A DNA stretch of 36,517 nt from Betaproteobacteria bacterium (GTDB taxonomy: Bacteria > Pseudomonadota > Gammaproteobacteria > Burkholderiales > Rhodocyclaceae). Below the pieces are notes generated by a model. That model searched no databases, was not told the origin of the DNA, and worked only from the letters and a program-made list of their open reading frames with translations. This document shows positions 1-36,517 of this stretch, piece after piece (positions within the stretch are counted from its first letter, which is position 1; each line of letters starts with the position of its first letter). The position numbers were made by a program, and so were the translations under genes. The stretch spans positions 1-36,517 of the forward strand of contig WRKX01000012.1 in NCBI GenBank assembly GCA_009777925.1, written 5' to 3'.

Positions 1-783
1 ACCTTTGGACGGCTGTTTGGGTTAATTGATCCAACGCAATTTGAGGTCGCCTTTCGGCGCTGGGTCGGATCGATCCTCCCGGCGCTGGGGGCCGATGCCG
101 TGGTGGCAATCGACGGTAAGAGCAGTCGGCGCACAGGCAAGGTGGATGCCACGCCGCAGCATCTGGTGAGCGCGTTTGCCGCAGGTGCCGGTTTGGTGCT
201 TGGGCAGCGGGCGACGGCGGCGAAGTCCAATGAAAAGACGACCATTCCTGAACTCCTGGCTACCCTGGCGCTGGAAGGCTGCATTGTCACGCTCGATGCC
301 ATGGGTACCCAGACCAACATCGCCCAGGCCATCCGCAACCGTGGTGCCAATTACATCCTGGCGCTCAAGGACAACCAACCGAACCTGGCCAATTCGCTGC
401 GCGATTTCTTTGCCCAGTTCAAGGCTGCACCGGACAGGACACCCCACGCGATGTCCGAAACCGTGGAGAAGGATCATGGACGAATCGAGACACGGCGTTG
501 TTATGCCTTCGATCAACTGGCGTGTCTGCATATAGTGCTTCTCGTAATTATTTTTACCCTTTCTCGCTTGCAGGATAGGATGTCTGAAGGTTGATAAAGT
601 AAGATTATTTAGGAAAAGAACTATAAACCCGAGCAGTGGCCCGATCTGAAATCCTTCGCGGTGATCGAGTCGCAGCGCGAAATCAAGGACAGGACGACGC
701 TTGAGCAGCGCTACTATCTTTCGAGCCTCGCCCCAGATGCAGATCGCCTCTTGCGGACAATCCGCGCTCACTGGAGTATTGAA
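1..783 (+). pseudogene. ISAs1-family (IS4-like DDE) transposase, truncated at the window edge and at its 3' end, and interrupted by a 95-bp MITE at 531-625
   Basis: The frame through position 1 reads TFGRLFGLIDPTQFEVAFRRWVGSILPALGADAVVAIDGKSSRRTGK...TLDAMGTQTNIAQAIRNRGANYILALKDNQPNL. After the MITE it resumes as KPEQWPDLKSFAVIESQREIKDRTTLEQRYYLSSL...LLRTIRAHWSIE, typical of ISAs1-type transposases. The C-terminal part is missing. Confidence 0.85.
531..625 (+). mobile_element. MITE-A copy 1 (95 bp including TA on both sides)
   Basis: TATAGTGCTTCTCGTAATTATTTTTACC...AGTAAGATTATTTAGGAAAAGAACTATA. Imperfect terminal inverted repeats of about 28 bp; TA at both ends; near-identical to copies at 812, 12431 and 36346. 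Confidence 0.93.
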
Positions 784-811: not shown

Positions 812-906
812 TATAGTGCTTCTCGTAATTATTTTTACCCTTTCTTGCTTGCAGGATAGGATGTCTGAAGGTTGATAAAGTAAGATTATTTAGGAAAAGC
901 ACTATA
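812..906 (+). mobile_element. MITE-A copy 2 (95 bp)
   Basis: Same 95-bp sequence as copy 1 with two substitutions by eye; same orientation; 160 bp upstream of fliC. Confidence 0.93.
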
Positions 907-4128: not shown

Positions 4129-4149
4129 GGGGCGCGATTTATCGCGCCC
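4129..4149. repeat. REP-like palindrome (GGGGCGCGATTTATCGCGCCC)
   Basis: Same core GGCGCGATTTATCGCGCC recurs at 22925, 28090, 28239 and 28609. Confidence 0.8.
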
Positions 4150-5007: not shown

Positions 5008-6911
5008 GTGCGCCGGGAGACCGGCAAGGAGTAGATGGTGCAAGTCCATTACGATGAAGGAATAGCTAACCACATCGGCCTCAAGCCGTGCGTATTCGTT
5101 CGCAAGGACGATTGCGAAGCGTCGGTAGAGGTGCGCATAGGCCAGCCATTGAGCCGCGAAAGAAGCGATCCCCGGGCAGCCGACGTTTTGCGTAGTACGG
5201 AAGGCAACAGCGACAGGCGCGTTATAGCGAGTGTGTGTCGCTCCCGGCGTGGTCATAGACCCTGGCATGTACGTAAGCTCCTTGTTTGGGAACCGGGAGG
5301 TCCCAGTTTTGGCCGCTGTGAAAGGGCGGTCCGCATCGGGAAGGTGAGGAGCCGCAGCCGATGATGCACGAAACTGGGAAGTCAGACCCCGCCATAGTAG
5401 CTGTGAAGTCGGCGAACGAAGCGGGTCAAACCGCTAAGGAGCTGATGGAGCCAAGGGCGGGGGCCAAGGGGAATGTGTTGCAGCAAAGCACGCACCAGAC
5501 CCAGAGCTGGGTAAGCGTGACACAGGCGCTGGAGCGCATACGGCAAATTGCAAGGCAACGTAAGAAGGAGAAGTTTACCGCCCTCATGCATCACATTAGT
5601 CTGGAACTGCTCGAAGCGGAATTCTTTGCCCTTAAAGGAAATGCTGCGGCGGGCGTGGATGGACTGACGGGGAGCGACTACGAGAAAGAGCTGGAAGCCA
5701 ACCTTCGGGCGCTACACAGCCGTGTTCATTTGGGCAGCTACCGACCCTTACCGTCCAGACGGGTTTATATCCCCAAGCCGGATGGTCGGCAACGTCCGAT
5801 AGCCGTTGCAGGTCTGGAGGACAAGATAGTACAACGGGTCACAGCAACGATACTGAACGCGATCTATGAGGAAGAGTTCCTTGGATTCTCGTATGGATTT
5901 CGGCCTGGCCGCAGTGCGCACGATGCGATGGACGCGCTTGTGGTTGGGATGGAAAGCCGAAAGGTGAATTTCGTGGTAGACGCCGACATTCGGTCATTCT
6001 TCGACACGGTAGACCAGAAATGGTTAATTCGCTTCGTGGAACATCGGATAGGCGACAAACGCATCATCGGCCTGATTCAGAAATGGCTTAAGGCGGGAGT
6101 TCTGGAAGAAGGGCAGGTCAGGGTCAGCCAGATCGGTACGGCACAAGGGGCGGTGATTTCACCGCTGCTTGCCAATATCTACCTGCACTATGTGCTTGAT
6201 CTGTGGGCGCAACGCTGGCGACGGCGTGATGCCACGGGCGAGATGATAATCGTGCGCTACGCCGATGACTTCATTGTGGGCTTTGAGAATGAAGACGATG
6301 CCCATCGGTTTCTGGACATGATGCGTGATCGGCTGCAAGAGTTCGGTCTGTCGTTGCACCCTGAGAAGACCCGGCTGATTGAGTTTGGACGTTTTGCGGC
6401 GCAGAACCGCAAACGGCGAGGGCTTGGTAAGCCGGAGACGTTCGACTTCTTAGGCATGACTTTCATCTGCTCAAAGACACGACGGGGCAAGTATCAAGTC
6501 AAACGCAAGTCCCGGCGGGACCGTCTAAGAGCCAAACTGAAAGAGATCAAGCAGACGCTTCGACGGAACATGCACAGGTCAATTCCTGAACAGGGAAGAT
6601 GGCTGGGGCGTGTCGTCACAGGATACTTCAACTATCATGCTGTGCCGACGAACATGAGTTCGCTAAGCACTTTCCTATACCACGTAACAGACCTCTGGAA
6701 AAAGACGCTACGGCGTCGCAGCCAAAAGGATCAGACGATATGGACGAGGATCAGGAAGCTGGCGAGCGAGTTTCTACCCAAGCCGCGAATCCTTCACCCG
6801 TGGCCAAACCAACGATTTGCCGTCACTCACCCAAGGTGGGAGCCGTATGCCTTAATTGGGCACGTACGGTTCTGTGCGGGGGCGCCCAGTAATGGGCGTC
6901 CCTACCGCGAT
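5008..6911 (+). mobile_element. Group II intron (about 1.9 kb) with encoded RT/maturase
   Basis: 5' end GTGCGCCGGGAGACCGGCAAGG (GUGYG-type). Domain V-like GAGCCGTATGCC-TTAATT-GGGCACGTACGGTTC at 6840-6872. Removing 5008-6911 rejoins ...GGATTGCTTCGCTGCGC|TCGCAATGACG, the complement of the left arm of the palindromic repeat. Confidence 0.9.
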
Positions 6912-6920
6912 TCGCAATGA
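5361..6920 (+). CDS. ltrA: Group II intron-encoded reverse transcriptase/maturase
   Basis: AAAGVDGLTGSDY, RRVYIPKPDGRQRPIAV, FGYGFRPGRSAHDA-like, VVDADIRSFFDTVD, GTAQGAVISPLLANIYLHYVLD, MIIVRYADDFIVGF (YADD), and X-domain LGRVVTGYFNYHAVPTN. The true C-terminus is uncertain because the ORF runs through D5/D6. Confidence 0.95.
   Translation: MMHETGKSDPAIVAVKSANEAGQTAKELMEPRAGAKGNVLQQSTHQTQSWVSVTQALERIRQIARQRKKEKFTALMHHISLELLEAEFFALKGNAAAGVDGLTGSDYEKELEANLRALHSRVHLGSYRPLPSRRVYIPKPDGRQRPIAVAGLEDKIVQRVTATILNAIYEEEFLGFSYGFRPGRSAHDAMDALVVGMESRKVNFVVDADIRSFFDTVDQKWLIRFVEHRIGDKRIIGLIQKWLKAGVLEEGQVRVSQIGTAQGAVISPLLANIYLHYVLDLWAQRWRRRDATGEMIIVRYADDFIVGFENEDDAHRFLDMMRDRLQEFGLSLHPEKTRLIEFGRFAAQNRKRRGLGKPETFDFLGMTFICSKTRRGKYQVKRKSRRDRLRAKLKEIKQTLRRNMHRSIPEQGRWLGRVVTGYFNYHAVPTNMSSLSTFLYHVTDLWKKTLRRRSQKDQTIWTRIRKLASEFLPKPRILHPWPNQRFAVTHPRWEPYALIGHVRFCAGAPSNGRPYRDSQ
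6840..6872 (+). ncRNA. Group II intron domain V
   Basis: GAGCCGTATGCC TTAATT GGGCACGTACGGTTC folds into a D5-like hairpin with the AGC triad near the 5' base. Confidence 0.8.
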
Positions 6921-9192: not shown

Positions 9193-11061
9193 TCAGCAGC
9201 GCACCTTGCGGATGGCGCTTAAAATGCCTTCCGCGTCAAGACCGGCTTCGGCGAGCAGTTCTTTTTGGTCGCCGTGCTCTATGAAGTGATCGGGCAGACC
9301 AAGGCGCAGCAGCGGCACATCCAGTCCCATTTCCGTCAGGGCTCTGGCTACTTCCGCGCCCGCGCCGCCAACGACGGCGTTTTCTTCCAGACTAACCAGA
9401 AGGGTATGCGATTTTGCCAGACGTGCAAGCAGTTCCCGGTCAATGGGTTTGACAAAACGCATGTTGGCAACGCTGGCGTCAAGCGTATCGCCTATCGCCA
9501 GCGCGGTAAAGAGCAGACTGCCGAAGGAGAGCAGGGCGACATCTTTCCCTTCCCGCCGTAATTCGCCCTTGCCTGGTGGCAATGCTTCCAGATCATTGCC
9601 GGCGGTCACGGCAAAATCGCTGCCGCCGCGCGGATAGCGCACCGCAACGGGAGTATTGAGCTTGTAGGCAGTGGTTAGCATCCGTCGGCATTCGTTTTCA
9701 TCCGCCGGAGTCATGATAGTAATGTTAGGCACGCAGGCAAGATAAGAAAGATCGAAACTGCCATGATGAGTCGCGCCATCCGCGCCGACCAGGCCGCCTC
9801 GATCAATGGCGAACACTACCGGCAGGTTTTGCAGGGCGACATCGTGCACCAGTTGATCGTAGGCGCGTTGCAGAAAGGTAGAGTAAATGGCGACGACCGG
9901 CTTCAAGCCTTCACAGGCGAGACCGGCGGCGAAGGTGACCGCGTGCTGCTCGGCAATGCCGACATCGTAATAACGGTCGGGGAACTCTTCCGCGAAACGG
10001 GTCATGCCGGAACCTTCGCGCATGGCAGGGGTAATGCCGACCAGACGTGAATCGGCAGCCGCCATAGCGCAGAGCCAATCGCCGAAAACCTGGGTATAGG
10101 TGAGTTTGCCGGCCTTGTTTTCGGCAATGCCTGTGTCAACATCAAATTTGCCTACGCCGTGATACAGAATCGGGTTGGTTTCAGCCAGCTTGTAGCCCTG
10201 CCCTTTGCGAGTGATGACATGCAAAAACTGCGGACCTTTCAGTTTTTTGATATTTTCCAGGGTGGGCAGGAGGGCGTTAAAGTCGTGGCCGTCAATGGGA
10301 CCGTAATAGTTGAAACCGAATTCCTCAAACAAGGCTCCCGGTGTAATCATCCCCTTGACGTGCTCTTCCGCGCGTCGCGCCAGTTCCAGAAGAGGTGGCG
10401 CGAAACCGAGCATGTGCCTTCCCGCTTCCTTGGCCGCGTTGTAGGTCTTGCCGGACATCAATCGGGTAAGAATACGGTTGAGAGCGCCTACCGGAGGAGA
10501 AATTGACATTTCGTTGTCATTGAGGATGACGAACATGTCGACATTGGCAATGCCAGCGTTATTTAATGCTTCAAAAGCCATGCCGGCAGACATCGCGCCA
10601 TCGCCGATGATGGCGACGACTTTTTTCTCTTCGCCCAGGCGTCTTGCCGCAAGCGCCATGCCGAGCGCGGCGGAAATGGAAGTGGAAGAGTGCCCCACAC
10701 CGAACGTGTCATATTCGGATTCGGAACGGCGGGGAAATCCGGCAATGCCGTCTTTCATCCTTAAGCGCGCCATCTCGGCGCGGCGTCCGGTCAGAATCTT
10801 GTGGGCGTAGCTTTGATGCCCGACATCCCAGACAAGGCGGTCATAAGGCGTATTGAATACGTAATGGAGTGCGATGGTAAGCTCCACCGTACCCAGATTG
10901 GAAGAAAGATGCCCGCCGGTACGGGACACCGATTCCACCAGAAAGGTACGCAACTCTTCCGCCAGGCGCGGCAGGTCGCGTTTGTCCAGCAGGCGCAGGT
11001 CGACAGGCGAAGCGATGCCGTCCAATAGAGAATCGGAGGAGGGAGAGTCGCGTTCCATCAA
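9193..11061 (-). CDS. dxs: 1-deoxy-D-xylulose-5-phosphate synthase
   Basis: [48 protein letters not shown]..., [38 protein letters not shown]. Confidence 0.98.
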
Positions 11062-11975
11062 AATCGCCGGTCACAGATAAAATCAGTCAGTTCAGTTAGA
11101 CGTTGCCCGCCCTTGTCGAAGCGGGTCAGGGCAAGACGCGCTTCCTGCCGCAATTCGTCCGCGTAACGCCTGGCTTCGTCAAGACCCAGAAGACTAACAT
11201 AGGTCGGCTTGGCAGTGGCATTATCCTTGCCAGCCGTCTTGCCCAGAGTGGCGCTTTTTTCCGTGCAGTCGAGAATGTCGTCGACCACCTGAAACAGAAG
11301 ACCGACGCGATTGGCAAAATGATCCAGCCGGTTGAATGCCCCGGTTTCTTTCAGGTTATCCTCGCCGGACAGGCTCTTGCCGCACAACGCGCCCAGACGG
11401 ATGGCGGCGCGGATTAAAGCGCCTGTTTTCATCGCGTGCATCAATTCCAGTTCCGGGCGGGTAAGGGTTTTGCCCACAGCCGCCAGATCAACAGCCTGTC
11501 CGCCTGCCATGCCAAGGGAGCCGGAAGCGTGCGCCAGCGCCCTGACCGCCTGCAATTGCCGCGCAGAGCGGGAAGAGTCGAATAGCCCGGGTTTCGCCAG
11601 ACATTCAAAGGCAAGGCTTTGCAGGGCGTCGCCTGCCAGCAGCGCAGTCGCTTCATCGAACGCGACATGACAGGAGGGACGCCCGCGCCGTAGCGCGTCA
11701 TCATCCATGCAGGGCAGGTCGTCGTGAATCAGGGAATAGGCGTGGATCAACTCAACCGCAACGGCAGAGGCCAGCAGCGGGGGAGGGGCCGCCTCTGCCA
11801 GTTCGCCGGCGGCAAAAACCAGAAGGGCGCGGACTCTTTTCCCGCCGCCCAGGACGCTGTAGCGCATCGCCTCATGCAGATTGTGCGGAATGGCCTCTCT
11901 ACCGGGCAGGATTGTGTCCAGATGCTTTTCCACATCCTGCTGAACCGAGATCATCCAGGCGGAAAAATCGGTCAT
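11058..11975 (-). CDS. ispA: Polyprenyl (farnesyl) diphosphate synthase
   Basis: [19 protein letters not shown]...[40 protein letters not shown]. Start chosen at ATG 11975, overlapping the xseB end. Confidence 0.96.
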
Positions 11976-12220
11976 AGTGCCTCCCCGTCCGGCGAAAAGG
12001 GTTTCAGCGTGCCAGCTTCCAGTACCTTGATGCGTTCTTCCGCTTCCTTTAATTGATTCTGGCAATGTTGAAGCAAGGCCATGCCGCGCTGGTAGGCGGC
12101 GATGGAATCTTCCAGTTCCAGATTGCCGCCTTCCATGCGAGCTGCCAGCGTTTCCAGCTCGGCAAGCGCCGTTTCAAATTTCAGGTCGGCAGGCAGGGGT
12201 TCGGGGTGAGTGGTCGCCAT
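11972..12220 (-). CDS. xseB: Exodeoxyribonuclease VII small subunit
   Basis: FETALAELETLAARMEGGNLELEDSIAAYQRGMALLQHCQNQLKEAEERIKVL. Confidence 0.95.
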   Translation of the reverse strand: MATTHPEPLPADLKFETALAELETLAARMEGGNLELEDSIAAYQRGMALLQHCQNQLKEAEERIKVLEAGTLKPFSPDGEAL

Positions 12221-12430: not shown

Positions 12431-12525
12431 TATAGTGCTTTTCATAAATAATCTTACTCTACCAACCTTCAGACATCCTATCCTGCAAGCGAGAAGAGGT
12501 AAAAATAATTACGAGAAGCACTATA
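12431..12525 (-). mobile_element. MITE-A copy 3 (95 bp, opposite orientation)
   Basis: TATAGTGCTTTTCATAAATAATCTTACTC...GTAAAAATAATTACGAGAAGCACTATA; reverse complement of copy 1 with a few substitutions and identical length. Confidence 0.93.
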
Positions 12526-12782: not shown

Positions 12783-13340
12783 CTAATCACTGTTCCCTGT
12801 TCCCTGCCTGCCGTCTTCCAGGTCGAACAGAGTTTCATCAATCTCGGTGCGGAGTTTTTCCAGAAACATCAGACGTTGCGTAAGATCGGCAGCGGTGGGG
12901 TAATCCAGTTCGTCATCCAGAAGATTGCCGAGAGTCTCAAAATGATGCGCCAGATCACGCACAAGACGTTCCAGAAGATGCTCAAGGCTCCGCGCGTCGT
13001 TGCTTGCGCGAGCCTCAAGGATGGCTTCCCGCCATTCCATCTGCTCCATAAGAAATTCAGCGGGCAACGCCTGACCAGACCCTACAGCAAACCCCAGATG
13101 TTGCAGCAGATAAAGGGCGCGGGGCAGCGGCTCTTTCAGGGTTTGATACCCCTCATTGATCCGCGCGGCCAATTGCGCGGAGACGCGGCGGGTTTTTTCA
13201 TCCGCGCCTGAAAAGCGGTCAGGGTGCGCCTCGCGCTGGAGGGCAAGATAACGTTCCTCCAACTCCGCCTGCGCAATACGAAAAACCGGCTGCAAGGCAA
13301 AGAGAGTAAAAAAATCCGCAGTCAGTCCCCGGACGCTCAT
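12783..13340 (-). CDS. hscB: Co-chaperone HscB (Fe-S assembly J-protein)
   Basis: [46 protein letters not shown] (HPD motif)...[24 protein letters not shown]. Start at MSVRG is estimated; the ORF extends to 13367. Confidence 0.9.
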
Positions 13341-13660
13341 ACATTGAAACTTTCCCCGCAGCCGCATTGATTGCTGACATTCGGGTTGTTGAACTGAAAG
13401 CCTTCGTTCAACCCTTCGCGGGTATAGTCGAGTTCGGTTCCTTCAAGATAAGGCAGGCTCTTGGCGTCAACAAAAACCTTGACGCCATGACTGTCAAAAA
13501 CTTCATCGCCAGACTCCGCTTCGTCAACAAACTCCAGGCGGTAAGCCATGCCGGAACAGCCGCTGGTGCGAACTCCAAGGCGAAGCCCCAGACCCTTGCC
13601 GCGCTTCTCAAGATATTTGACGACGTGTCGCGCCGCCTGTTCAGTAAGGGTAATTGCCAT
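13337..13660 (-). CDS. iscA: Iron-sulfur cluster assembly protein IscA
   Basis: [44 protein letters not shown]...CGCGESFNV; three conserved Cys. Confidence 0.96.
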
Positions 13661-22924: not shown

Positions 22925-22944
22925 GAGCGCGATTTATCGCGCCC
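22925..22944. repeat. REP-like palindrome
   Basis: GAGCGCGATTTATCGCGCCC. The flank ...ATTGCTGTCTGCAAGATCG matches the flank of the 28239 copy. Confidence 0.75.
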
Positions 22945-28073: not shown

Positions 28074-28119
28074 ATTGTAGGGGCGTAATTTGGGGCGCGA
28101 TAAATCGCGCCCCTACAAT
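28074..28119. repeat. REP palindrome with extended inverted repeat, immediately after the pilY1 stop
   Basis: ATTGTAGGGGCGtaatttgGGGCGCGATAAATCGCGCCCCTACAAT. Confidence 0.8.
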
Positions 28120-28238: not shown

Positions 28239-28258
28239 GGGCGCGATTTATCGCGCCC
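28239..28258. repeat. REP palindrome
   Basis: GGGCGCGATTTATCGCGCCC. Confidence 0.8.
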
Positions 28259-28342: not shown

Positions 28343-28881
28343 ATGAGGCAACACGACCCAGACATCCACCATCGGCGCAGTATTCGCCTTAAAGAGTATA
28401 ACTATGCGCAACCAGGACTATATTTTGTTACGATTTGCGTACACAAGTGGCAGCCGTTGTTCGGCGATGTTGTAAACGGGGAAATGCGATTGAATACGTG
28501 CGGGAAAATCGCAAATGAATGCTGGACGGCAATTGCGACAAAATTTGAAAACACATTCCTGCGTGAATTCATAGTCATGCCAAATCACATACACGGAATT
28601 ATCGAAATCGTAGGGGCGCGATTTATCGCGCCCCTACGAACGGCGGGTTTGCCAGCGCGAAAAATCCAATGTCATATACAAATCCGGCGCGAATCATTCG
28701 TTGGTATAAAGGGCGCACAAGCTTTGAATGCCGTAAAAAACAATCCGCATCCGCATGGCACCGCAATTATTATGAACATGTAATTCGCAACAACGACGAC
28801 TATCTCCGCATTGCGGCATATACCGCCAATAATCCCGCTAAATGGCAGGGAGATCGCTTTTATTTGTATATTCCAGTTTGA
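28343..28881 (+). pseudogene. REP-associated tyrosine transposase (RAYT, Y1/HUH transposase_IS200-like), frame-disrupted at an internal REP
   Basis: Frame 1: RRSIRLKEYNYAQPGLYFVTICVHKWQPLFG...FIVMPNHIHGIIEIVGARF (HUH-type HxH). The C-terminal half is in another frame: GAIYRAPTNGGF...ARIIRWYKGRTSFECRKK...WHRNYYEHVIRNNDDYLRIAAYTANNPAKWQGDRFY. Confidence 0.85.
28609..28638. repeat. REP palindrome inside the RAYT coding region
   Basis: CGTAGGGGCGCGATTTATCGCGCCCCTACG, nearly perfect 30-bp palindrome. Confidence 0.88.
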
Positions 28882-28958: not shown

Positions 28959-29065
28959 TATAGTGATTCCCCAAAATCCCAATACTTTGTCGACTTCGCT
29001 TTGTCGTACTACTCGTACTGTCTGCGGCTCGTCTTCGCGTCTTGGTATTTTGGAGAATCACTATA
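28959..29065. mobile_element. MITE-B, Correia-like element (107 bp)
   Basis: TATAGTGATTCCCCAAAATCCCAATACTTTGTCG...GTCTTGGTATTTTGGAGAATCACTATA: about 24-bp TIRs with TA at both ends. Core CGTACTACTCGTACTGTCTGCGGCTCGTCTTCGCGTCTTG. Confidence 0.85.
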
Positions 29066-36145: not shown

Positions 36146-36517
36146 ATGCCTGCTTATTCACAAGATTTAAGGGATCGAGTCCTTGACGCGCTTGAGCGTG
36201 AAGAACGTCCCAGTAGGATTGCACAACGTTTTGTGGTCAGCCGTAGTTGGGTTTACCAGGTACGTGACCGGCTACTCAGGGACGGCAAGCGTACTGCGTT
36301 GCAGGTAGGCGGGTATCGTCGTAGCCGAATTGAACATTTGCAGCTTATAGTGCCTCTCGTAATTATTTTTACCCTTTCTCGCTTGCAGGATAGGATGTCT
36401 GAAGGTTGATAGAGTAAGATTATTTAGGAAAAGCACTATACCCTCTCCTCCTGGATTCAGGAACAATCCGATTTGACATTGGAGGAAATATGCGCCAGGT
36501 TGTCCGAACTGGGAATT
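36146..36517 (+). pseudogene. IS630-family transposase N-terminal part, interrupted by MITE-A copy 4 and truncated at the window end
   Basis: MPAYSQDLRDRVLDALEREERPSRIAQRFVVSRSWVYQVRDRLLRDGKRTALQVGGYRRSRIEHLQL; after the MITE it resumes as TLSSWIQEQSDLTLEEICARLSELGI. Confidence 0.87.
36346..36440 (+). mobile_element. MITE-A copy 4 (95 bp)
   Basis: TATAGTGCCTCTCGTAATTATTTTTACC...AGTAAGATTATTTAGGAAAAGCACTATA; same length as the other three copies. Confidence 0.93.

What the first reader, a model, noticed from the sequence alone, without database searches (positions are those of the whole stretch)
531..625. A 95-bp TA-flanked MITE family in four copies, all of identical length
Copies at 531-625, 812-906, 12431-12525 (inverted) and 36346-36440 differ from each other by only a few substitutions and no indels. 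Each starts TATAGTGC and ends GCACTATA (copy 1 ends GAACTATA), with about 28-bp imperfect TIRs and TA at both ends, as expected for a non-autonomous element mobilised by an IS630/Tc1-type transposase. Four near-identical copies in 36 kb suggest recent activity. I do not recognise this consensus as a named family.
Basis: partly seen in the sequence, partly recalled or inferred. Interest (0 to 1): 0.75.

Follow-up and report, generated by a model that had tools for sequence, protein, structure and literature searches.

The report
IS630-type 95-bp MITE family
The four repeats are copies of a tiny gene-less transposon that has inserted about sixty times in one betaproteobacterial genome, most likely moved by an IS630-family transposase; it is a new member of a well-known kind of element.

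Summary
Four 95-bp copies lie at the stated coordinates, and the same genome (2.47-Mb draft) holds about 62: 60 full-length plus 2 truncated, averaging 1.8% from consensus, nearly all exactly 95 bp. It is a genuine TA-targeting MITE: at 12 insertion sites an uninterrupted paralog elsewhere in the genome has a single TA where the element sits. Window copies 1 and 4 both interrupt transposase-like sequences that have such paralogs. The genome also carries IS630 elements (HTH_Tnp_IS630 + DDE_3; the most complete is 944 bp) whose ends share the TATAGTGCTTYYC terminal repeat. No intact transposase, and no autonomous element with exactly this subfamily's ends, was found in the draft. Two further MITE subfamilies share the terminal repeats but not the cores, yet are also 95 bp; that is the only mildly surprising point. 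The family was not found in 60 relatives, including 20 congeners. I found no published entry, but ISfinder could not be searched. A role as an in-frame protein insertion was tested and not supported. Verdict: a new member of a known kind, working like pneumococcal RUP with IS630-Spn1.

The parts
531..625 (+). MITE subfamily A, copy 1 (91-bp mobile unit plus TA on each side), inserted in a sequence I recognise as an ISAs1-like transposase (recognition from memory, not tested against a profile)
   Evidence: 10 uninterrupted paralogs with a single TA at CTGCA-TA-AACC
812..906 (+). MITE subfamily A, copy 2
   Evidence: an identical copy lies at G000:C19:108-202
12431..12525 (-). MITE subfamily A, copy 3, between a polyprenyl synthetase gene (11058-12065) and an HscB-like gene (12783-13367)
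36346..36440 (+). MITE subfamily A, copy 4, interrupting a transposase-like gene (HTH_23 match just below cut-off on the left part; I read it as IS630-like)
   Evidence: 99% identical uninterrupted paralog L065 with a single TA

Best explanation
A non-autonomous IS630/Tc1-mariner-type MITE. The mobile unit is 91 bp (95 bp counting the TA at each side), with imperfect terminal inverted repeats of about 28 bp and no gene. An IS630-family transposase supplied in trans binds the repeats, cuts the element out and inserts it at a TA, preferably within TTAA, duplicating the TA. Shown: the ends, the TA duplication, the copy number, the target preference, and IS630 elements with the same class of terminal repeat in the same genome. 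Inferred: that this class of transposase moves it, and that the chemistry is the cut-and-paste measured for ISY100.
For: About 62 copies with unrelated flanks that diverge right at the TA. Empty paralogous sites with exactly one TA at 12 of 59 insertions. TTAA at 25 of 58 sites against 6.6% of neighbouring TA sites. IS630 elements in the same genome with ends TATAGTGCTTYYC and HTH_Tnp_IS630, DDE_3 and NF033545 matches. MITE subfamily C shares its first 28 bp exactly with the 944-bp IS. In ISY100, transposase alone suffices and 30 bp of each end are enough (PMC2170065).
Against: No IS in the draft has exactly A's ends (19-21 of 28 positions shared with the IS ends), and every IS630 copy of this group that was read is frameshifted, truncated or cut at a contig end. 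Transposition itself was not observed.
Confidence: 0.93

Rival explanations
1. A protein-coding insertion module like the Rickettsia palindromic elements: the net insertion is 93 bp (31 codons) and one frame is fully open, so the element would add a peptide to host proteins.
For: 57 of 58 A copies and 11 of 11 B copies keep the same open frame.
Against: In the 15 longest read-through cases inspected, I saw no recognisable gene continuing on both sides (judged by eye, no profile search of these ORFs). Only 1 of 4 C copies is open. One open frame in six is not unlikely by chance.
Confidence: 0.03
2. An internal fragment or end of a longer element, or a structured RNA or REP-type repeat rather than a transposon.
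For: The genome also has other repeat families, such as a 20-bp palindrome at 61 places.
Against: Empty sites join exactly at the TA on both sides; no Rfam match at these places; single-strand folding only weakly above shuffles (z -1.66).
Confidence: 0.01
3. Moved by a transposase other than the IS630 group with TATAGTGC ends, for example a different TA-targeting enzyme acquired and lost.
For: No partner with A's exact ends and no intact transposase was found.
Against: The terminal repeats of A, B, C and the IS630 elements share the first 10 bases and the same downstream pattern.
Confidence: 0.05

Closest known systems
RUP of Streptococcus pneumoniae with IS630-Spn1 (PMC2229807)
   Same: About 107 bp, about 108 copies, no gene, TA target, ends like those of an IS630 element, often inserted in IS elements
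   Different: Other sequence and host; here 95 bp, longer terminal repeats (about 28 bp against 9 contiguous paired bases listed for RUP), exact partner not identified
Correia/NEMIS elements of Neisseria (PMC2229807)
   Same: TA at the ends, about 107 and 155 bp, terminal repeats of about 24 bp, high copy number
   Different: Unrelated core; no IHF site or transcription role was looked for here
ISY100 of Synechocystis (IS630/Tc1-mariner; PMC2170065)
   Same: TA target and short imperfect terminal repeats; the DDE domain of the partner IS is 41% identical to a protein encoded on Synechocystis PCC 6803 plasmids
   Different: ISY100 is autonomous; that the Synechocystis plasmid hit is ISY100 itself was not proved

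Membership tests
IS630/Tc1-mariner-type MITE | Short gene-less element with terminal inverted repeats | tested here: met
   95 bp, 22 of 28 terminal positions match; one open frame of 31 codons, without evidence of coding
IS630/Tc1-mariner-type MITE | TA target duplicated on insertion | tested here: met
   12 of 59 sites have an uninterrupted paralog with a single TA
IS630/Tc1-mariner-type MITE | Dispersed multi-copy family | tested here: met
   about 62 copies
IS630/Tc1-mariner-type MITE | Terminal repeats matching an autonomous IS630 element | tested here: inconclusive
   same repeat class in IS630 elements of this genome, but 19-21 of 28 positions and no intact copy
IS630/Tc1-mariner-type MITE | Mobilised in trans by IS630 transposase | not testable with these tools
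   needs an excision or insertion assay
Rickettsia-palindromic-element-like coding insertion | In-frame inside real genes, translated | tested here: not met
   no gene recognised on both sides in the 15 longest read-through ORFs

The most novel reading that the evidence does not exclude
Three MITE subfamilies (A, B, C) in one genome share terminal repeats but have cores with no detectable relation, and all are 95 bp in nearly every copy. This could mean that the IS630 transposition complex favours one end-to-end spacing. Elements of 141 and 278 bp with related ends exist at low copy, and a common 95-bp ancestor whose core diverged is not excluded.
Probability: 0.25. Interest if true: 0.45.

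Novelty: new member of a known kind. Interest (0 to 1): 0.27.

Why it matters
It documents a high-copy MITE family, with empty sites inside the same genome, in a little-studied betaproteobacterial genus that includes a termite-gut MAG. The shared 95-bp length of three unrelated cores gives a simple test of whether the transposase sets the length of bacterial MITEs.

Tried and rejected
A search of open-access papers for the terminal repeat as letters listed papers on unrelated subjects among the top 20 of 446. Plasmid and phage collections gave no DNA match. Two scans of viral contigs got no answer, so that collection is untested. A quick inverted-repeat scan did not find the ends of the Synechocystis homologue. 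No solved structure matched the DDE part by sequence. The in-frame coding idea was tested and dropped. Ungapped comparison of the A, B and C cores gave no similarity above shuffles.

Full report
What is there. All four copies are real. The window is contig C12 of a 2.47-Mb, 175-contig draft, 95% complete. The genome has 63 matches to the left end of the element. The loci held gave 59 distinct full-length copies and 2 partial ones, and one more was fetched later. 57 of the 59 are exactly 95 bp. Divergence from consensus averages 1.8%, with 30 distinct sequences and 84 identical pairs among the 57. Equal length within this family is therefore what recent copying would give. The genome average is about one copy per 40 kb, so four in 36 kb is somewhat high.

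How it inserts. I joined the two flanks of each copy at a single TA and compared them with the DNA held. Twelve of 59 sites have an uninterrupted paralog with exactly one TA at the junction. Only fetched loci were searched, so 12 is a lower bound. Window copy 1 has 10 such paralogs; I recognise the interrupted sequence as an ISAs1-like transposase, from memory. Copy 4 has a 99% identical one in L065. Another copy lies inside the terminal repeat of an IS630 element, with 24 uninterrupted matches (some of these matches come from overlapping loci). Targets are TTAA in 25 of 58 cases, against 6.6% of TA sites within 150 bp. I used neighbouring sites as background because the flanks are AT-richer (GC 0.51) than the window.

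What probably moves it. The genome has many IS630 fragments, about half of them reaching a contig end, as expected for a repeated element in a draft. The most complete copy (L032:1012-1955, 944 bp) has TATAGTGCTT ends. It encodes an HTH_Tnp_IS630 domain and a DDE_3 / IS630 transposase domain, but the frame is broken. Copies of a second type, about 78% identical, are also broken; runs of 8 or 6 A occur where 7 would keep the frame, which may be decay or slippage. The ends of A match the IS ends at only 19-21 of 28 positions, so the exact partner is unknown. For ISY100, transposase alone suffices and 30 bp from each end are enough (PMC2170065), so a 95-bp element carries all that is needed in cis.

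Relatives. Subfamily B (about 14 copies) and subfamily C share the terminal repeat class and are 95 bp in nearly all copies. Their cores show no ungapped similarity to A or to each other above shuffles. Elements of 141 and 278 bp with related ends also occur, so 95 bp is not obligatory. Subfamily A was found in none of 60 relatives, 20 of them congeners. The terminal pattern was found in one congener, G013. A scan of 85,462 species genomes hit only that MAG, but that pattern covers the IS, B and C type ends and not those of A, and records near the window may be left out.

Alternatives. The net insertion is 93 bp, and A and B each keep one open frame, so I asked whether host genes read through it. 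In the 15 longest cases I saw no recognisable gene on both sides. No RNA family matches at these places.

Known or new. It works like RUP with IS630-Spn1 and resembles Correia elements (PMC2229807). I did not find this sequence reported, but ISfinder could not be searched. It is an ordinary new member of a known kind, with one modest open question about the shared length.

Noticed in passing
window 28959-29065: A 107-bp element with TATAGTGATT ends and about 7 longer copies in the genome (81-89% identical); possibly a second, older MITE family of the same general kind.
   Followed up: partly
window 4130-4149, 22925-22944, 28093-28112, 28239-28258, 28614-28633: A palindrome GGGCGCGATWWATCGCGCCC found at 61 places in the genome with up to 1 mismatch, 0 for the reversed control; often in pairs about 60-170 bp apart.
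   Followed up: partly
window 5041-6911: A group II intron (Rfam RF02005 and RF00029) enclosing a reverse transcriptase gene at 5361-6920.
   Followed up: no
L010 and L013 (G000:C20:600-694 and C96:8913-9007): Two copies share their right flank but not their left, suggesting recombination between copies or an assembly join.
   Followed up: no
L032:1403, L034:471, L133:1815: IS630 transposase genes of this genome carry 8, 8 and 6 A at the same place, where 7 would keep the frame; decay or programmed slippage.
   Followed up: no
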